Part shown: positions 29,857 through 38,993 of the stretch, in pieces
Position numbering within the stretch: position 1 is the stretch's first letter
How the letters are laid out: every line of letters begins with the position of its first letter
Assembly (NCBI GenBank): GCA_020852835.1
Contig: JADZAC010000020.1
Coordinates: 1-39,203, forward strand
DNA from: Flavobacteriales bacterium
Lineage (GTDB): Bacteria > Bacteroidota > Bacteroidia > Flavobacteriales_F > PHOS-HE28
Direction: 5' to 3'
Length of the DNA stretch: 39,203 nt
Program-made: the position numbers and the translations under genes
The notes under the pieces: model-generated
The model's input: the letters and a program-made list of their open reading frames with translations, nothing else
The model's database searches: none
Told to the model about the DNA's origin: nothing

Positions 29857-30045
29857 GCAAGAAGCAAGCCTGCCGGCCCCGCTCCCGGGCCATCCCATGG
29901 GGCGCGCATGGCCGCGAACTCCGGATCGCCGCCCTTTCTGCCCGGAGCGCAAACCCTTCCGGTGAACAGGTGTTGAACGGCGAAGTGCGGCACGGGCCCG
30001 GATCAAGGGCCAATGCAGTCCATATCCCGTTGCGGCACCTCCTGT

Positions 30046-30053
30046 TATTTTAC
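30046..30053 (+). promoter_or_regulatory. Weak -7 promoter element of the macroglobulin gene
   Basis: TATTTTAC keeps TAnnTT but not the final TG. It lies 19 nt before the ATG at 30073 in a 216-bp gap that holds nothing else I recognise. Confidence 0.25.
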
Positions 30054-30072
30054 AGGCCTGATCCACCCAAGC

Positions 30073-33000
30073 ATGTACCGTACCCTGCGTTCCATTCCGC
30101 TGTTGGCCTTGCTCTCCCTGCTCGCATGTACGCAGCGCAACACCGGCGAGCGCCCCGGCGATGCCTTCATCCCCTATGTAAAGGCTTTCACTTCCGGCCA
30201 CATTTCCGCGCGCTCCCCGGTGCGCGTGCGCATCGCGGAGGGCCTCACCCTGAAGGACACCGGCCATGCCGCGCTGCAAGGCTTGTTCTCCCTGAGCCCT
30301 TCCGCCGAAGGCACCGTGGACTGGATGGACGACCGCACATTGGCCTTTACGCCGGCCAAGCGCTTTGAACAGAACACGGAGTACACCGTGACCTTCCGCC
30401 TCGGCAAGCTCACCGAAGTGCCCGACCAACTGAAGGACTTCAAATTCTCCTTCACCACGTTCGCGCAGCAGATCGACCTGCGGGTGGAGGACTTCGTGCC
30501 CGTCAGCCCTGCGGACCTCACCTGGCAACGCGTGGTGGTGGGCGTGTTCACCAGCGATGACGCCACCGGCCAAGACCTGGAAGGCGGCGTGAAAGCCACG
30601 CAGGACGGGCGCCTGCTGAAGATGACCTGGGAACACGAACCCGGCGGCACGCTGCACCGCGCCGTGGCCGACAGCGTGCTGCGGGGCGCCAAGGCCAGCA
30701 CCGTCGAATTCACCTGGGATGCCGGCCGCATCGGAGGCAAGGGATCCGGCAGCCAAACCTTCCACGTGCCCGCCATCGGCGACTTCAGCCTCATCTCCTC
30801 CTCCACTTCCACCGAGGGCGAACAGTGCGCCACGCTCCTCTTCAGCGACCCGCTGGATCCCGCGCAGGACCTCAGCGGCTTGGCGGGCATTGCCGGCGCG
30901 GACAAGGTGCGCCTGGCAGCTACCGGCAACAAGCTCCTGCTCTACCCGGAGCAGCGCCTCACCGGCGACCAAAGCGCCTTCGTGGCCGCGGGCCTCAAGA
31001 ACATCAACGGCTTTGCCCTCGGCAAGGACCTCACCGTGGACCTGCTCTTCGAGGAAGTGAAGCCCAATGTGCGCGCGGTGGGCAACGGCACCATCCTGCC
31101 AAGCACCGACGGCCTGCTCTTCCCCTTCGATGCAGTGAACCTCAATGCAGTGGATGTGCGCATTGTGCGCATTTATGAGGACAACATCCCGCAATTCCTG
31201 CAAGTGAACAACCTCGACGGCGAACGCGAACTCGCCCGCACCGGCCGCTTGGTGCTGAAGCGCACCGTGCCGCTCAACGCCAAGGAGGCCGCGCGGCCCG
31301 GGGCATGGAACCGCTACTACCTCGACCTGGACAAATTGATCAAGGCCGAACCCGGCGCCATCTACCGCATCCTCATCGGCTTCCGCCAGGCATACAGCAC
31401 CTACCCCTGCGGAAAGGCACCCGCCCCAGCGCCCTTGGTGGAGCAAGAGCCGGAACCAACGGATGAGGCGCAATGGGACGAGCCGGAGCAGTACTACTAC
31501 AACGACTACTACTACGAGGAATACGATGAGGGCGAATACAACTGGAACGACCGTGGAAACCCCTGCACCGCCAGCTACTTCCGCGACAAGGGCAGCGTGT
31601 TGCAGCGCAACATCCTCGCCTCCGACCTGGGAATGATCGCCAAGCGCGCGAACGACGGATCCCTGCTGATCGCCGTGAGCGACCTGCGCACCACGGAACC
31701 CGTGAAGGGCGTGGAGATCAAGGTACTGGACCTGCAACAGCGCGCCATGGCCACGGTAACCACCGAACGCGACGGCATGGCCATGGTAACCTCCACGGCG
31801 CACAAGCCGTTCCTGCTGGTGGCCTCCAAGGGCCCGCAGCGCGGCTACCTGAAACTGGACGACGGCAGCGCGCTCAGCGTAAGCAACTTCGACGTGGGCG
31901 GGGAACAAGTGGACAAGGGCGTCAAGGGTTTCCTCTATGGCGAGCGCGGCGTGTGGCGGCCGGGGGATCCGCTCTACCTCACCTTCATTCTGCACAAAGC
32001 GCAACAGGCGTTGCCCAAGGACATTCCGGTGACGCTCGAACTCAGCGATCCCCAAGGCCGCCTGGACCAGCGCATGGTGCGCACCAGCGGCGTGGACGGC
32101 ACCTACTCCTTCCACTGCTCCACTTCCGCGGATGCGCCCACGGGCGTGTGGGGTGCGCGCGTCACCGTGGGCGGCACTTCCTTTTACAAGCCGCTGCGCA
32201 TTGAAACCGTGAAGCCCAACCGCCTGAAGATCCTGCTGGACCTCGGCGGCGACAAACGTTTTACCGGTGATGGAAAACCCGTGCAGCTGCAGGGGAACTG
32301 GCTGCACGGCGCCCCCGCCAGCGGCCTGAAGGCCCGTGTCTCGGCCACCATCACGCGGTCCAGCGCCGAGTTTGCCGGGTATACGAAGTACACCTTCAAC
32401 GACCTGCGCAACGACCTGAGCACGGAGGAAATGCCCTTGTTCGACGGCACGCTGGACGCCAACGGCCACGCCTCCTTCCCCTTTACGCCGGACCTGAACG
32501 CCAATGCCCCCGCAGCCGTGCGGGCCAACGTGGTCACGCGCATCTTCGAGGCCGGCGGCGATGCCAGCATGGACCGCACGGACCTGCTCTACTACCCCTA
32601 CACCAGCTATGCCGGGCTGCTGCCCGCCGAGCCTTCAAGCGAATGGGGCGGCTACTTCACCGACACCACTTACGCCTTCGGGGCCGTGGCCGTGGCGCCC
32701 GAGGGCAAGCCCCTCGCGAAGCACACGCTGAAAGTGCAGGTGGTAAAGCTGGGCTCAAACTGGTGGTGGAGCGGTGACATGGACGATCCCGCCAACTACA
32801 TGTCCGCGCCCAGCACCCGCGTGCTGAAGGAGGAAGAGATCACCACCGATGCCCAAGGCAAGGCCCGCTTCAACTTCCGCGTGGACCGCCCGTTGTGGGG
32901 CGTCTTTCTCGTGCGGCTCAGCGACCCGGCCAGCGGCCACGTGGCCGCAACGGAACTGTATGTGGACTGGCCCGGCTACGGCGGACGCAGCCGCCGCGAA

Positions 33001-35670
33001 AATGGCAAGGCCGCAGCCATGCTCACCTTCAACACGGACAAGGCGAAATACGCCGTGGGCGACCCATGCACGCTCACCATCCCCAGCTCCGGAAAGGGCC
33101 GGGCACTGGTGAGCCTGGAAAGCGGCAGCCGCATCCTCCAAGCCAACTGGATCGAGCTCAAGGAGAAAGAAACCAAATACAGCTTCGCCATCACCAAGGA
33201 CATGGTGCCGAACATCTACGCGCACGTCACCCTGGTGCAGCCGCACGCGCTCACCGCCCCGGCCGACAGCAGTGGCGGCAATGCCGGCAATGACCTGCCC
33301 ATCCGCATGTACGGCGTGGTCCCCGTAATGGTGGAAGATGCGGCCACGCACCTTTCCCCGATCATCGGTACCGCCGCGGAATTCAAGACCGACAAGCCCT
33401 TCACGGTGGAGGTGGCCGAGAAGGACGGCAAGGCCATGACCTACACCTTGGCCATCGTGGATGAAGGTTTGCTGGACCTCACCCGTTTCAAAACGCCCGA
33501 CCCATGGGGCTACTTCCTGGCGCGCGAAGCGCTGGGCGTGCGCACCTGGGACCTGTACGACCAGGTGATCGGCGCCTTCGGGCAGCGGCTGCGCCGCGTG
33601 CTTGCGCTCGGCGGCAGCGACCAGGTCGACCCCGCCGCAGCGGCCAAGGCGCAACGCTTCAAGCCGGTGGTGCATTTCGTGGGCCCGTTCAAGCTGGCCA
33701 AGGGCGCCAAGGCAAAGCACACCTTCACCATCAGCAACTACGTGGGCAGCGTGCGCGTGATGGTGGTGGCTAACAACCCCGGCGGAGCCTACGGCAGCGC
33801 GGAGAAGGCGGTGCCCGTGCGCAACCCGTTGATGCTGCTGGCCACCCTGCCGCGCGTGGCCGGCCCCGGCGAAACCGTGGACCTGCCCGTCACCGTGTTT
33901 GCCATGGACCCCAAGGTGAAAAACGTGCGGCTCAAGCTTGCCGCCAACGAACTCTTCAACGTGGTAGGCGGGTTGGAACAGGCGCTCACCTTCACCAAAA
34001 CCGGCGAACAGACCGTCACCTTCCGTGTAACGCTGAAAGACCGCATCGGCGTGGGCAAGGTGACACTGACCGCCGAAGGTGCCGGTGAAAAGGCCGCACA
34101 AAGCATCGAGATCGACGTGCGCCAAGCCGGCCAGCCGGAAACGAACGTCACCGAAACCGTGGTGGAGCCCGGCGCCAAATGGGAAGGCGCCCCGGAAGCC
34201 ATCGGCATCGCCGGCACCAACAGCGCCTACCTCGAATTGAGCACCCTGCCACCGGTGGACATGGGCCGCCGCCTGCAATACCTCATCGACTACCCGCACG
34301 GCTGCCTGGAGCAGACCACCAGCAAGGCGTTCCCGCAGCTCTTCCTGGCAGATGTGATGGACATGAGCGACGCAGGGCGTGACGAGATGCGCCGCAACGT
34401 GCAGGCCGGCCTGGGCAAGCTGAAGCAATTCCAAGTGGCGGGCGGCGGGTTCAGCTACTGGCCCGGCAACCGCGACGCCGATGATTGGAGCTCCACCTAC
34501 GCGGGACACTTTATGGTGGAAGCCGAACGCATGGGTTTCACGGCCCCGCCGGGGGTGAAGGATACTTGGCTCACCTTTATGCGCAACCAGGCGCGCAACT
34601 GGGCGCCCGGCGAACGCGATACGTGGAGCCGCGCCAGCAGTGAACTGGCCCAGGCCTACCGCCTTTACGTGCTGGCACTGAACAACACGGCCGAAGCCGG
34701 GGCCATGAACCGGTTGCGCACCACACCAGGCATCTCCGCGCAGTCGCGCTGGATGCTCGCCGCAGCCTACGCCCTCAACAACCGCAACGACGTGGCCCGC
34801 GAGATCGCCAAGAACCTCACCACCAGCGTGCAGCCCTACCGCGAATTGGGCTGGACCTACGGCAGCGGCCTGCGCGACCAGGCCGTGATCGCAGAGGCCC
34901 TGATGCGCATGGACGACAAGGCCGCAGCGGCGGGCGTGGTGCGCGACATCTCCGCGAAGCTCAGCAGCGGCGAATGGTACAGCACCCAAAGCACCGCCTG
35001 GGGCCTGCTCGCCGTGAGCCGGTTCGCCGCCGGACAAGACCTGGACAAGACCATGCACTTCACCTCCATGGTGAACGGTAAAACGGAAAACCGCGTAAGT
35101 GCAAAAGCCATCGTGCGCCTGGACCTCCCCGCCCCCAACGGCCAGCGCAAGATCTCCATCGCCAACACCGGCAAGAACCTGATCTACCTGCGCCTGGTGC
35201 GCACCGGCACCCCCTTGGCCGGGCAGGAAACGCCCGCCAGCCAAGGCCTGGCCATGGAAGTATCCTACCGCACCATGGACGGCAACGCGATCGATCCCGC
35301 CACGCTGGACCAAGGCACCGACTTCCAGGCCGTGGTAACGGTGCGCAACCCCGGCACGCGCGGCAACTACCAGGAACTGGCCTTGACGCAAGTGTTCCCC
35401 AGTGGCTGGGAGATCCGCAACAGCCGCCTGGAGGGCACCGGGAACGCCATCGTAAACGGTCCCTACAACTACCAGGACATCCGCGACGACCGCGTGCTCA
35501 CCTATTTCAACCTTGCCGCCGGCGAAGCCGTGACCTACCGCGTGCTGCTCAACGCCGCCTACACCGGCCGCTTCCATTTGCCCGGCACCACCTGCTCCGC
35601 GATGTACGACAACACGGTGAACGCCCGCAACGGTGGCCAATGGGTGGAGGTAAGGGCTCCCGGGCGGTAG
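30073..35670 (+). CDS. Bacterial alpha-2-macroglobulin lipoprotein
   Basis: The 1865-residue product is a lipoprotein (LLALLSLLACTQ, Cys19). It has MG-type beta domains, a bait-region middle part, and the thioester motif CLEQ at 1411-1414 within YPHGCLEQTTSKAFPQLF, followed by the alpha/alpha thioester domain (GGGFSYWPGNRDADDW) and a receptor-binding-like end (YDNTVNARNGGQW). Such proteins trap attacking proteases covalently in the periplasm. A Tyr/acidic insertion (about 455-500, with EQYYYNDYYYEEYDEGEYNW) is unusual. The ATG at 30073 gives the lipobox; the in-frame ATG at 30013 would bury it. The usual partner penicillin-binding protein 1C gene does not follow; instead an RHS fragment begins inside the last codons. 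Confidence 0.93.
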   Translation: MYRTLRSIPLLALLSLLACTQRNTGERPGDAFIPYVKAFTSGHISARSPVRVRIAEGLTLKDTGHAALQGLFSLSPSAEGTVDWMDDRTLAFTPAKRFEQNTEYTVTFRLGKLTEVPDQLKDFKFSFTTFAQQIDLRVEDFVPVSPADLTWQRVVVGVFTSDDATGQDLEGGVKATQDGRLLKMTWEHEPGGTLHRAVADSVLRGAKASTVEFTWDAGRIGGKGSGSQTFHVPAIGDFSLISSSTSTEGEQCATLLFSDPLDPAQDLSGLAGIAGADKVRLAATGNKLLLYPEQRLTGDQSAFVAAGLKNINGFALGKDLTVDLLFEEVKPNVRAVGNGTILPSTDGLLFPFDAVNLNAVDVRIVRIYEDNIPQFLQVNNLDGERELARTGRLVLKRTVPLNAKEAARPGAWNRYYLDLDKLIKAEPGAIYRILIGFRQAYSTYPCGKAPAPAPLVEQEPEPTDEAQWDEPEQYYYNDYYYEEYDEGEYNWNDRGNPCTASYFRDKGSVLQRNILASDLGMIAKRANDGSLLIAVSDLRTTEPVKGVEIKVLDLQQRAMATVTTERDGMAMVTSTAHKPFLLVASKGPQRGYLKLDDGSALSVSNFDVGGEQVDKGVKGFLYGERGVWRPGDPLYLTFILHKAQQALPKDIPVTLELSDPQGRLDQRMVRTSGVDGTYSFHCSTSADAPTGVWGARVTVGGTSFYKPLRIETVKPNRLKILLDLGGDKRFTGDGKPVQLQGNWLHGAPASGLKARVSATITRSSAEFAGYTKYTFNDLRNDLSTEEMPLFDGTLDANGHASFPFTPDLNANAPAAVRANVVTRIFEAGGDASMDRTDLLYYPYTSYAGLLPAEPSSEWGGYFTDTTYAFGAVAVAPEGKPLAKHTLKVQVVKLGSNWWWSGDMDDPANYMSAPSTRVLKEEEITTDAQGKARFNFRVDRPLWGVFLVRLSDPASGHVAATELYVDWPGYGGRSRRENGKAAAMLTFNTDKAKYAVGDPCTLTIPSSGKGRALVSLESGSRILQANWIELKEKETKYSFAITKDMVPNIYAHVTLVQPHALTAPADSSGGNAGNDLPIRMYGVVPVMVEDAATHLSPIIGTAAEFKTDKPFTVEVAEKDGKAMTYTLAIVDEGLLDLTRFKTPDPWGYFLAREALGVRTWDLYDQVIGAFGQRLRRVLALGGSDQVDPAAAAKAQRFKPVVHFVGPFKLAKGAKAKHTFTISNYVGSVRVMVVANNPGGAYGSAEKAVPVRNPLMLLATLPRVAGPGETVDLPVTVFAMDPKVKNVRLKLAANELFNVVGGLEQALTFTKTGEQTVTFRVTLKDRIGVGKVTLTAEGAGEKAAQSIEIDVRQAGQPETNVTETVVEPGAKWEGAPEAIGIAGTNSAYLELSTLPPVDMGRRLQYLIDYPHGCLEQTTSKAFPQLFLADVMDMSDAGRDEMRRNVQAGLGKLKQFQVAGGGFSYWPGNRDADDWSSTYAGHFMVEAERMGFTAPPGVKDTWLTFMRNQARNWAPGERDTWSRASSELAQAYRLYVLALNNTAEAGAMNRLRTTPGISAQSRWMLAAAYALNNRNDVAREIAKNLTTSVQPYRELGWTYGSGLRDQAVIAEALMRMDDKAAAAGVVRDISAKLSSGEWYSTQSTAWGLLAVSRFAAGQDLDKTMHFTSMVNGKTENRVSAKAIVRLDLPAPNGQRKISIANTGKNLIYLRLVRTGTPLAGQETPASQGLAMEVSYRTMDGNAIDPATLDQGTDFQAVVTVRNPGTRGNYQELALTQVFPSGWEIRNSRLEGTGNAIVNGPYNYQDIRDDRVLTYFNLAAGEAVTYRVLLNAAYTGRFHLPGTTCSAMYDNTVNARNGGQWVEVRAPGR

Positions 35671-38291
35671 GCAACGACCTCACCTACGATCACGCCACGC
35701 ACTACAGTTACGACATCCACGGCAACGTGAAGGAACTGGTGCAGGACAACCCCCAACTGGCCCTGGATGCAGGTGCCACCACGCCGGACGACCCCGCCTT
35801 TGCCTGGCACCGCTACAAGCACATCGCTTACACCTACGACCTGATCAGCGGCAACGTGAAACAAGTGGACTACCAGGAGGACCGCCCGGACCAGTTCCAC
35901 CACCGTTACGAGTACGATGCCGATAACCGCATCTCCCGCGCCGGCACCAGTGCCGACGGCCTGCTCTGGTACAAGGACGCCGAGTATTTCTACTATCCCC
36001 ACGGCCCCTTGGAACGCGTCGAGCTCGGTCAATCCAACGTGCAGGGCGTGGACTATGCCTACACCTTGCAAGGCTGGCTCAAGGGCATCAACAGCGACCG
36101 CCTTACACCCCTCAACGACATGGGGCTGGACGGTGCTGAAATCAATTTCAACCCCAACAAGTATGTAGGGCGTGATGCCTTCGGCTTCTCCATCGCCTAC
36201 TTCGGCGATGCCGACTACCAGGCCATCCACCCGGGCCGTTGGAACAACCAGAACGGGAAGCGCCCCTTCGCCCCCGCCGGCAGCGCGGGGTCCGTGGCCG
36301 CCCTGCAGCGCCCCCTTTACAACGGCAACATCGCCCGCACCGTGCAGAGCCTGCAGCCCTTCGGCCTCTGGACCGCCTATGCCCAACCAGGCCAGGTGCT
36401 GGCACAGGTATACCGCTATGACCAGCTCAACCGCCTGAAGAGCGCCCGCGGCGTGGACGGACTTACCGACCTGAACACCTGGCACAACGTCAACGACCCC
36501 GTGGTGAACCGCTACCTGAGCGAATATGCCTACGACGCCAACGGGAACATCCTCACCGCCGACCGCTGGAGCAACCAGGGCGCGGTGTACGACCAACTGC
36601 GCTACAAATACCAGGGCACCCAACCGCAGGGCACCCCCCCGCCCCCCTCCCGGGCCGTGAACAACCGCCTGTATGAACTATACGATAACGACCCCGGCAC
36701 GGCCGACAACCCCACACCGGACGACATCCGTGCCCCCGTAGACCCCAACACCACCCCGCCGGGTACCCCGCACCTGATCCCCGGCCCCGTGAACGGCACC
36801 ACCAACTACCGCTACGACGAACTGGGCAACCTGGTCCACGACACCCGCGAACAGGTCCAGACCATAACCTGGACCGTGGCCGGCAAGGTGGCCGCCGTTG
36901 AGCGCACCGCCGGCAGCAGCCGCCCGCCCCTGGCTTTCGGTTACGGGGCCGATGGCCAGCGCATCTCCAAAACGGTGGGCGACCCATTGAACGGCGGTTA
37001 CCGGGAGTACTACCTTCGTGATGCCCAAGGCAATGTGATGGCCATGTACAAGTACGCAGGCAACGGAACGAGCCTGAAGGCAACGGACCGCCCGATCTAC
37101 GGCAGCAGCCGCTTGGGCAGCTACGCCCGGCCCATGGAACTGATGGGCCAAAGCGGCACCCTGCCCCCGAGTTTCAGCCATCCCATACAGCGGGTGCACC
37201 TGCGCTATGAACTCACCGACCACCTGGGCAATGTGAGCGCCGTGGTTACTGGGCGGCTGCTGCCCGTTACCAATTACAGCGGTGGTTACGAGGCGGAGCT
37301 GGTAAGCGCACAGGGGTATGAGCCCTTCGGGTCCCTGCTGCCCGGGAGGAATTACAGCAGCTCCAGCTACCGGTTCGGGTTCCAGGGACAAGAGAAGGAT
37401 GACGAAGTGTACGGGGCCACAGGCACGAGCTATGCGTTCGAGTACAGAATGCACGACCCCAGGGTGGGCAGGTTCTGGAGCATCGATCCATTAGCATTTA
37501 TGTTCCCATGGAACTCACCGTATGTGTTCAGTGAAAACCGTGTGCTTGACATGGTTGAGCTTGAAGGGTTGGAAGCTGCACCTACTGAAGACAAGAAACC
37601 CATGGATCCAGGTGCTATCGACAAAGTGGAAGATTGGTCCATCACGAAACAGAGACCAAGTAATTTCATGGCGGATGATAACGTTCCGTCTGACCCATCT
37701 GAAACAGCACCTCCTGTAGGAAATGCGCCAAGTCCGTTCTCCAATAGTAGATTATTTACCCCGAAGCCGGGAGTAGGTGCTCTTCGGGGGCCGTCGGTTT
37801 CAGTTGCGGGGCCTAATTGGGGCTTGAAACGAAAGTCTGATGGTATTGGTCATTCATGGTCAATATTTGATGCGATTAACGCCCATAATTCATTGAATGA
37901 TAAATTTGGTTTTGGCATTTCATTAAGTTCTACGATGGTAGGTGGAGTAGTTGGATCAGAATTGAATACACAATATAAATATCAGTCACCCACTGTGGCC
38001 GCTGATAGGTCGGTTGCCAAATTCCTGGGTAGAGCAAGGAAGGGGCTAACTCTTATAAATAAAGCAATGGGTATTAGTGATGTTATTAATCATAGCTCAT
38101 CTATGATTCATAATTTCAGATTAGGTAATTATCGTGATGGTTTAATTGATGGGGCTAAAGTAGGATTTGACGTATGGTTAAACTTTACGCCAGCTGGCCG
38201 AGTTGCAAGAATTGCGAAAACTGGAATTGGATTAGGATATGGTTATATGGAAAGTTCAGGAATGCTTAACTGGGATTACTGGAGTAAATGA
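35640..38291 (+). pseudogene. 5'-truncated RHS-repeat protein with AT-rich C-terminal tip (orphan polymorphic toxin candidate)
   Basis: The open frame from 35640 has 883 codons but no signal peptide and no natural start; the RHS reading becomes family-like at about SRAVGNDLTYDHATHYSYDI (35658 on). YD repeats follow (YEYDADNRISRAGTSADG; YAYDANGNILTADR; YRYDELGNLVHDTREQ; YYLRDAQGNVMAMY), then the Bacteroidota RHS end block EPFGSLLPGRNYSSSSYRFG and DPRVGRFWSIDPLA (ending 37496). The last 264 residues (620-883) are coded by AT-rich DNA and are not recognised; they include Gly-rich hydrophobic stretches (FGFGISLSSTMVGGVVGSEL; RVARIAKTGIGLGYGYMESS). This layout is that of a polymorphic toxin tip. 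The first 31 bp overlap the macroglobulin end in another frame. It may be silent, or translated by reinitiation after the macroglobulin stop. Confidence 0.75.
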
Positions 38292-38698
38292 AAATATTAA
38301 TTCATATTTACGCAAAAATTATGGCTTCCGTAATGCTTATGGAGGGAAAGAATGATAACTGGTATGTCGTAATTGATTCATTATTTAAATTACTGATTTT
38401 TATTTTAATATCTATTCTGCCATTCGTTATAGGTTTGTTATATGTGTTTGATATTGCTGAAAATAGCCAAACTATAGCTAATATTAGTTTCATAGTTCCA
38501 GCAATTATATTCATACTTATGGTGTTGTTTTTTTTCACAAGAAGAAATGAGATTTATCAAGAACGCGACTTGATTTTGGCAAATGAAGAAGATAAAGTGC
38601 GAACTCGTAAGTATGCGAACCGTGTTGTTTCTATGGCGTTATGTGTATTTGCTATAGAGTTTATAATAGTAGCCTCATATTTCATGCTTGCCGGGTAA
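38288..38698 (+). CDS. Small membrane protein, candidate immunity protein of the RHS tip
   Basis: The 136-residue product has three strong membrane segments: KLLIFILISILPFVIGLLYV, IANISFIVPAIIFILMVLFF and VVSMALCVFAIEFIIVASYF, with a short charged stretch (ARKYANR-like, REIYQERDLILANEEDK) between the last two. It overlaps the RHS stop as ATGA, so it is coupled to the tip. Its DNA is very AT-rich (28% and 27% GC in two 60-nt lines counted by hand), matching the tip and not the rest of the window. By position it is the cognate immunity gene; membrane immunity proteins usually answer membrane-acting toxins. I recognise no family. No start alternative is needed. Confidence 0.7.
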   Translation: MKILIHIYAKIMASVMLMEGKNDNWYVVIDSLFKLLIFILISILPFVIGLLYVFDIAENSQTIANISFIVPAIIFILMVLFFFTRRNEIYQERDLILANEEDKVRTRKYANRVVSMALCVFAIEFIIVASYFMLAG

Positions 38699-38710
38699 GT
38701 ACCCCCTAGC

Positions 38711-38755
38711 TGGCGCAAGTGTTCGGCGCGGGTAGGAATGAGCGAGGGCGGCCCG
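38711..38755 (+). repeat. Palindromic repeat, copy A (3' truncated)
   Basis: About 45 nt starting TGGCGCAAGTGTTCGGC agree with copy C at all but three positions, then the sequence diverges and lacks the closing CACTTGTGCCA arm. Confidence 0.75.
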
Positions 38756-38791
38756 CCCCCCGCACTCGCTCGCGTGCCCCTACGCGAGGCA

Positions 38792-38816
38792 CGCGCCCGG
38801 CTTTTTGCCGGGTGCG
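38792..38816 (+). terminator. Terminator-like hairpin after the immunity gene
   Basis: CGCGCCCGGC, loop TTTTT, GCCGGGTGCG form a 10-bp stem with one G-U pair, followed by TTTG. The T-tail is short, so termination strength is uncertain. Its left arm overlaps a rival stem (38771-38778 with 38788-38795). Confidence 0.45.
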
Positions 38817-38858
38817 TTTGCATTGTAGGGCCGTAAGCCTCCGGCCAACTACCCTAGA

Positions 38859-38916
38859 TGGCGCAAGTGTTCGGCCTGGGAAGGAATGAGCGGGGGCGGG
38901 CCGGTCACTTGTGCCA
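38859..38916 (+). repeat. Palindromic repeat, copy B (58 bp)
   Basis: The unit opens with TGGCGCAAGTG and closes with CACTTGTGCCA, which pair along 11 bp with one G-U. It differs from copy C at three of 58 positions. Confidence 0.85.
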
Positions 38917-38935
38917 TACGTGTTCAGTCCCCCGC

Positions 38936-38993
38936 TGGCGCAAGTGTTCGGCGTGGGGAGGAATGAGCGAGGGCGGGCCGGTCACTTGTGCCA
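38936..38993 (+). repeat. Palindromic repeat, copy C (58 bp)
   Basis: Same unit as copy B, starting 77 bp further on. Both keep the central GGAATGAGCG block and the GGGCGGGCCGG block before the closing arm. Each copy is preceded by a C-rich CCC(T)AG/CCCGC motif. Confidence 0.85.

What the first reader, a model, noticed from the sequence alone, without database searches (positions are those of the whole stretch)
37490..38698. Unrecognised Gly-rich tip with a membrane immunity protein: possible pore-forming toxin
The tip has no visible nuclease or deaminase motif but has Gly-rich hydrophobic stretches near its middle and C-terminus (TGIGLGYGYMESS and others). Membrane-embedded immunity proteins usually protect against pore formers or lipid-targeting toxins. 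The family seems new to me.
Basis: inference. Interest (0 to 1): 0.6.

Follow-up and report, generated by a model that had tools for sequence, protein, structure and literature searches.

The report
Orphan Rhs toxin tip, membrane-guarded
A stray bacterial toxin-tip gene sits with a small three-pass membrane protein that probably protects its owner; distant relatives suggest a toxin that harms rival cells at the membrane, but pore formation is unproven.

Summary
In detail: an 883-aa RHS ORF (35640-38291) ends in an unrecognised 235-aa tip, overlapped by 4 nt by a 136-aa gene with three predicted transmembrane segments. Tip and partner form an AT-rich cassette (GC 0.41/0.31 against 0.63 for the RHS core) without a long RHS N-terminus: an orphan tip/immunity cassette. 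Better evidence came from relatives. Tips linked to it by a chain of weak similarities recur in the same class, nearly always followed by a ~130-aa, three-TM, N-in/C-out protein. Members of that set match NCBIfam Bfe1 (tip, 1.2e-28) and Bfi1 (partner, 178 bits, above cut-off): the Bacteroides fragilis T6SS pair whose toxin kills from the periplasm. The window's own proteins match neither model, so membership is not claimed. Best reading: a divergent Bfe1-like toxin acting at the inner membrane from the periplasmic side, probably by helix insertion and depolarisation, blocked in the membrane by its partner. Cassette and membrane partner are well supported, Bfe1 kinship likely, pore formation inferred.

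The parts
35640..38291 (+). RHS ORF, 883 aa: truncated RHS core (about 648 aa) plus C-terminal tip; first ATG lies 31 nt inside the 3' end of the upstream gene
   Evidence: homologous frames in relatives run to 3744-4384 aa
37317..37568 (+). RHS-associated core domain (TIGR03696), ORF residues 560-643
   Evidence: residue range; nucleotide span converted from it
37584..37748 (+). tip linker, tip residues 1-55, shared with another tip in the genus (75% protein identity); DNA similarity ends near 37701
37749..38288 (+). variable toxin-like tip domain, GC 0.406; weak similarity to Bfe1-like tips over about 38004-38288; stop codon 38289-38291
38288..38698 (+). candidate immunity gene, 136 aa, three TM segments (aa 35-53, 66-84, 116-134) after an N-terminal helix; positive-inside pattern gives N-in/C-out; GC 0.309; ATGA overlap with the tip stop

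Best explanation
The stretch is an orphan polymorphic-toxin cassette: the end of an RHS core, a swapped-in toxin tip, and its immunity gene, lacking the long N-terminal RHS part that relatives carry. The tip is most likely a divergent relative of the toxin domain of Bfe1, the Bacteroides fragilis T6SS effector, which kills when placed in the periplasm. I think it acts on the inner membrane from the periplasmic side, its small-residue-rich helices inserting and letting ions through, and that the 136-aa three-TM protein blocks insertion or assembly within the membrane. Shown: cassette anatomy, AT-rich composition, overlap, predicted TM segments, recurrence of tip plus three-TM partner. Supported but not proven: kinship with Bfe1/Bfi1. 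Inferred: membrane insertion, depolarisation, immunity function, any delivery. In this genome the cassette may serve only as a stored tip and a standing immunity gene.
For: (1) GC: core 0.627, linker 0.473, tip 0.406, partner 0.309, downstream 0.663; DNA similarity to another tip stops near 37701. (2) 4-nt overlap, three TM; AlphaFold of the partner gives four helices, pLDDT 67.3. (3) G041 tip: BLASTP E 4e-8 with the window tip, followed at +4 nt by a 130-aa three-TM protein. Of 28 tip rows of the genus, two (L005, L006) have a three-TM partner and none of the other 26 does; 4 of those 26 have no downstream ORF listed. (4) A search with window+G041 tips over 395 genomes gave one further RHS tip (L101), also with a three-TM partner. 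(5) Profile A11 (L120, L005, L106; no window in it) gave 11 places in 395 genomes; 8 have a 127-144-aa multi-TM partner at once downstream, 3 do not. (6) Profile-profile window+L006+L101a against A11: probability 75%, E 2.6e-5. Leave-one-out HMM: window tip first, E 0.0014, above 1186 ORFs (repeats included) and 200 shuffles. (7) L137 tip to Bfe1 1.2e-28, L120 tip to Bfe1 3.7e-8; L137 partner to Bfi1 5.8e-53, 178.3 bits against cut-off 100; L105 and L101b partners 2.1e-5 and 7.4e-4. (8) Partner topology: three segments at KD 1.3 in 11 of 13 pairs, K+R mostly in the N-terminus and loop 2-3, few in loop 1-2. (9) Bfe1 with a signal sequence kills Bacteroides (PMC6692515, passages).
Against: Window tip and partner hit neither the Bfe1 nor the Bfi1 model. 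The window tip against L137 alone: no similarity, E 63. HMMs trained on five tips found without the window do not pick the window; with seven core tips it scores 9.5 bits in one alignment mode, E 0.09, below a shuffle of another tip, and is not among the eight rows printed in the other mode. With L006 and L005 also left out, the leave-one-out score falls to E 0.049. Alone against the core the window scores 21.7, best of 24 control tips 20.9; window plus L006 scores 18.7; the stronger score of the three-row profile (38.2) is carried by L101a, 36.3 alone. The window's partner does not stand out against shuffles in the partner HMM (4.8 bits). The tip has no TM-grade segment and is not unusually hydrophobic. 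No usable fold of the tip. L108, a tip caught by profile A6, has a different 239-aa partner. The mechanism of Bfe1 itself was not described in what I could read.
Confidence: 0.42

Rival explanations
1. The tip acts in the periplasm or inner membrane without making a pore: it attacks lipid II or a lipid, or jams a membrane protein, and the three-TM protein shields that target.
For: Membrane immunity fits any inner-membrane site of action. The window tip lacks a TM-grade segment (KD at most 1.05; rank 11 of 24). Other tips in the genus carry metallopeptidase-like motifs (HEIGH, HETAH, HEKGH; my reading of the sequences) next to partners with signal-peptide-like starts, so periplasmic targets are common here.
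Against: No conserved polar residue set among relatives; no enzyme family hit. Hydrophobic segments are frequent in the relatives (family median maximum KD 1.65 against 0.59 for other tips).
Confidence: 0.27
2. The cassette is a remnant: a silent orphan tip kept or decaying after a rearrangement, with only the immunity gene possibly used.
For: RHS core is cut to about 648 aa while relatives have frames of 3744-4384 aa; no N-terminal RHS part found in its own 99% complete genome (the same query finds a relative at 38% identity); the only other core match in that genome is also a short orphan. Orphan tips in E. coli CDI often lack translation starts while the immunity gene works (PMC3150448, passages).
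Against: Tip and partner frames are intact and overlap in the normal way. An orphan can still be a functional toxin when reattached (PMC3150448, passages). This rival concerns use, not what the tip is.
Confidence: 0.17
3. The helical domain is a pretoxin or translocation module rather than the killing part.
For: In L139 a related domain lies before a PT-HINT domain (PF07591, E 5.2e-12) and yet a three-TM gene follows.
Against: In the other relatives examined the domain is at the C-terminus; L137 and L120 tips match the C-terminal part of the Bfe1 model.
Confidence: 0.07
4. The tip is a soluble cytoplasmic enzyme (nuclease, NADase) of an undescribed fold, and the membrane protein is its oddly placed immunity or an unrelated neighbour.
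For: Tip composition is ordinary and no fold could be computed.
Against: Relatives keep a three-TM neighbour again and again; no enzyme family hit; no conserved polar residues.
Confidence: 0.07

Closest known systems
Bfe1/Bfi1, T6SS effector-immunity pair of Bacteroides fragilis (NCBIfam NF053698, NF053699)
   Same: Small membrane partner of about 130 aa next to a toxin; chain of similarity from the window tip through L006 and L101a to tips that match Bfe1; periplasmic action known for Bfe1 (PMC6692515 passages)
   Different: Window proteins do not hit either model; the toxin sits on an RHS core; no long delivery part in this genome
CDI ionophore toxins, CdiA-CT EC93 and kin (PMC11630599, abstract and two sections read)
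   Same: Polymorphic tips, very diverse, guarded by small hydrophobic polymorphic membrane immunity proteins; glycines the only shared element
   Different: Those immunity proteins have 72-100 residues and two helices with both ends inside; here 136 residues, three TM, C-end outside. No sequence comparison was made
Tse5/Tsi5, pore-forming Rhs tip of Pseudomonas aeruginosa (PMC9637101 and PMC10684867, passages read)
   Same: C-terminal Rhs tip acting in the inner membrane with a membrane immunity protein
   Different: Tsi5 has two predicted TM regions; Tse5 has a PAAR-like N-terminus; Tse5-CT has several predicted TM helices, the window tip none by KD
Glycine-zipper depolarising toxins EsxX/TelE (PMC12744356, passages read)
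   Same: Membrane toxin with polytopic membrane immunity
   Different: Extended glycine zipper is their hallmark; not enriched here
Tox-WTIP and the TM immunity families Imm-CdiI and Imm17 (PMC3482391, passages and one section read)
   Same: Non-catalytic membrane toxin idea; TM immunity
   Different: No Wx[ST]IP motif in the tip; those immunity families have two TM helices

Membership tests
Rhs polymorphic toxin with cognate immunity | RHS-associated core followed by a variable C-terminal tip | tested here: met
   TIGR03696 33.2 bits, cut-off 32.5; tips vary freely after the shared core in 28 rows of the genus
Rhs polymorphic toxin with cognate immunity | candidate immunity gene directly downstream | tested here: met
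   4-nt overlap; function of the gene not tested
Rhs polymorphic toxin with cognate immunity | N-terminal delivery part on the same protein | tested here: not met
   883-aa ORF starts inside the RHS core; no N-terminal part found in own genome
Bfe1 family T6SS effector (NF053698) | score at or above the NCBIfam cut-off of 315 bits | tested here: not met
   no hit for the window tip at E up to 1 (whole tip) and up to 10 (variable part)
Bfe1 family T6SS effector (NF053698) | homology of the C-terminal helical region | tested here: inconclusive
   indirect chain only:
Bfe1 family T6SS effector (NF053698) | T6SS delivery | not tested
   no search for T6SS or T9SS genes was made
Bfi1 family immunity protein (NF053699) | score at or above 100 bits | tested here: not met
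   no hit for the 136-aa protein; relative L137 met it, L105 and L101b weak
Pore-forming or ionophore toxin | membrane insertion and ion flux | not testable with these tools
   needs an experiment
Glycine-zipper toxin | (G/A/S)xxxGxxxG-type motif beyond chance | tested here: not met
   3 hits, shuffle P 0.1; not shared by relatives
Tox-WTIP | Wx[ST]IP motif in a hydrophobic helix | tested here: not met
   absent from the translation
CDI ionophore immunity | 72-100 aa, two-helix hairpin, both ends inside | tested here: not met
   136 aa, three TM, N-in/C-out pattern

The most novel reading that the evidence does not exclude
Bfe1-type toxin domains are not a private weapon of gut Bacteroides T6SS but one branch of a large, mostly unnamed family of membrane-acting toxin tips that ride on RHS proteins across the class, each with its own three-TM, C-end-outside immunity protein. 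The window holds one of the most diverged members, with a pore-forming or ionophore mechanism and a membrane immunity architecture unlike the two-helix ones described for CDI ionophores and Tse5.
Probability: 0.3. Interest if true: 0.6.

Novelty: new variant of a known kind. Interest (0 to 1): 0.4.

Why it matters
If the chain to Bfe1/Bfi1 holds, a gut T6SS effector whose mechanism I could not find described in the papers I could read becomes part of a wide family with many natural variants, so conserved positions and toxin-immunity contacts could be mapped by comparison. It would also add a three-TM immunity architecture to the two-helix ones known for Tse5 and CDI ionophores. For this window alone the interest is moderate: one diverged orphan cassette.

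Tried and rejected
Led nowhere: phmmer of tip and partner against PDB sequences; PHROGs and PADLOC, only weak matches, for example PADLOC CARF_2M at 0.0024 and Pfam Phycodna_minor_capsid at 0.0027 (below its cut-off) to the TM protein; plasmid tblastn of tip and partner; the search for related loci in genome contigs and viral contigs, all without a confirmed relative; Foldseek of the partner model against PDB, no match at E 0.001 or better, top row DgkA at E 0.9; the last genome search added nothing new (8 genomes).

Considered and rejected: glycine zipper as hallmark; unusually hydrophobic tip; window as a member of Bfe1/Bfi1 by model score; sequence homology of the window's partner with Bfi1-like partners, where only size and topology agree; L140, L142, L143 and ten of the 19 places as family members: no RHS tip with partner there. 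L108 is an RHS tip with another kind of partner and stayed in the tip set (as a test row and in the GxxxG count). L139 was added to the sets only; it stood among the decoys, where it scored 13.7-24.3 bits. L135 has an interrupted tip and was used for its partner only.

Full report
What is there. The window is one whole contig (C20, 39203 nt) of a 3.44-Mb, 96-contig genome rated 99.27% complete. An RHS ORF of 883 aa runs from 35640 to 38291 and a 136-aa ORF from 38288 to 38698; they overlap by 4 nt. The RHS-associated core is recognised (TIGR03696, 33.2 bits, cut-off 32.5). The tip after ELEGLE, 37584-38288, 235 aa, has no family in Pfam, NCBIfam, PHROGs, PADLOC or PDB sequences. The partner has three TM segments (KD 2.9, 2.8, 2.3); weak matches to other membrane proteins (for example PADLOC CARF_2M 0.0024, Pfam Phycodna_minor_capsid 0.0027) are taken as compositional.

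A swapped cassette. GC falls from 0.627 (RHS core) to 0.473 (linker), 0.406 (tip) and 0.309 (partner) and returns to 0.663 after it; DNA similarity to the tip of G042 (L005) ends near 37701, although that tip keeps the first 55 residues at 75% identity. This is the pattern of a tip/immunity cassette joined to a shared core. In the genus, 28 tip rows show different tips and different downstream genes.

An orphan. Homologous RHS frames in sister genomes reach 3744-4384 aa and two of them that I read begin with a signal-like N-terminus; one carries DUF6443. The window ORF begins only 31 nt inside the end of a macroglobulin-like gene. A 2800-aa N-terminal query from G032 found nothing in the window's own genome, while the same query finds its counterpart in G044 at 38% identity. 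The only other core match in the genome is a short orphan on C65. In four of seven relatives read, a lipoate-ligase-like gene (my naming from the sequence) follows the macroglobulin gene (L121, L122, L125, L127), so something was inserted or joined here; an assembly join cannot be excluded.

Is the tip Gly-rich and hydrophobic? Not more than its peers. Among 24 closed RHS tips (window plus 23 others), the window ranks 7th in Gly, 11th in maximum KD, 5th in mean KD and 13th in longest uncharged run. Zipper motifs are not clearly beyond chance.

What relatives say. The tip of G041 (L006) matches over most of the tip (BLASTP E 4e-8) and is followed 4 nt later by a 130-aa three-TM protein. A profile of these two, searched in 395 genomes of the class, gave five further places at E up to 0.01, about what chance would give; one of them (L101, E 0.0099) is an RHS tip, and it too has a three-TM partner, followed by a second tip/three-TM pair. 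A profile of five tips (A6) gave 19 places in the same genomes: eight RHS tips with a small multi-TM partner, one RHS tip with another partner (L108), ten chance places. A profile without the window (A11: L120, L005, L106) gave 11 places: eight with a 127-144-aa multi-TM protein at once downstream, three without. Of the non-seed places with E below 1e-5 in these two searches, six of six have the partner (L105, L106, L135, L136, L137, L138). Among 28 tip rows of the genus, only L005 and L006 have a three-TM partner. In 13 measured pairs, 11 show three segments at KD 1.3, one four, one two; positive charges lie mostly in the N-terminus and loop 2-3, which gives N-in/C-out.

The link to a known pair. 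L137's tip matches NCBIfam Bfe1 (1.2e-28; 100.5 bits, under the whole-protein cut-off of 315, matching model positions 185-309 of 313) and its partner is above the cut-off for Bfi1 (178.3 against 100). L120's tip matches Bfe1 (3.7e-8); partners of L105 and L101b match Bfi1 weakly (2.1e-5, 7.4e-4). The other relatives scanned did not: tips L106, L105, L136 and L006, L005, L138, L141 hit Bfe1 not at all. Bfe1 is a B. fragilis 638R T6SS effector; with a signal sequence it kills Bacteroides from the periplasm, and Bfi1 is its immunity protein (PMC6692515, passages). Nine paper searches showed me no description of Bfe1's mechanism and none of a Bfe1-like RHS tip family; the original 2016 paper is not held.

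How firm is the link to the window? Window tip and partner hit neither model. Window+L006+L101a against A11: probability 75%, E 2.6e-5. A leave-one-out HMM of 13 tips puts the window tip first, E 0.0014, over 1186 ORFs of the fetched loci and 200 shuffles; with L006 also out, 8e-5; with L005 out as well, 0.049. But models trained on tips found without the window do not pick it reliably, and singly it is only just above 24 control tips (21.7 against 20.9), the three-row score being carried by L101a. The partner does not score above shuffles. I put homology to the Bfe1-like tips at about 0.65.

Mechanism. A three-TM immunity protein with little outside the membrane points to the inner membrane as site of action; 11 aligned tips share only glycines and a few non-polar residues at 70%, which argues against an active site; many relatives have one or two hydrophobic segments (median maximum KD 1.65 against 0.59 for other tips); Bfe1 acts from the periplasm. 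Together these favour insertion and depolarisation, as shown by others for CDI ionophores (PMC11630599), Tse5 (PMC9637101, PMC10684867) and EsxX (PMC12744356). For the window tip itself this is inference: it has no TM-grade segment and no usable fold (pLDDT 33.7). A non-pore attack on lipid II or a membrane protein remains open. The partner model (pLDDT 67.3) has an N-terminal helix and three long helices, with no significant PDB match.

Verdict. Confirmed anatomy, weak original argument, a better one from relatives: a diverged orphan tip/immunity cassette, probably of the Bfe1/Bfi1 kind, membrane-acting, pore formation likely but unproven.

Noticed in passing
window 35640-35670: The RHS ORF begins inside the last 31 nt of an alpha-2-macroglobulin-like ORF (30013-35670) whose end lines up with its relatives; in relatives L121, L122, L125 and L127 a lipoate-ligase-like gene follows instead. 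Insertion or assembly join.
   Followed up: partly
window 38704-38993: Three copies of a 65-nt GC-rich direct repeat between the immunity gene and the contig end.
   Followed up: no
L139 (G409:C9): A Bfe1-like helical domain lies before a PT-HINT domain and only a short tail, yet a three-TM gene follows: perhaps a pretoxin use of the domain.
   Followed up: partly
L101 (G285:C33): Two successive tip/three-TM pairs, each three-TM gene overlapping its tip by 4 nt: a small array of this toxin class.
   Followed up: partly
L009 (G006:C65) and L135 (G328:C1): Tips that look interrupted; L135 keeps an intact three-TM partner, which fits kept immunity after toxin loss.
   Followed up: no
genus tips (L010, L031, L083): Metallopeptidase-like motifs (HEIGH, HETAH, HEKGH, my reading) next to partners with signal-peptide-like starts: perhaps periplasm-acting protease tips.
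   Followed up: no
L080, second tip, and L027: Two clearly related tips in different genomes (G041, G044), sharing AEYLEGGS.LER: another recurring unnamed toxin type.
   Followed up: no
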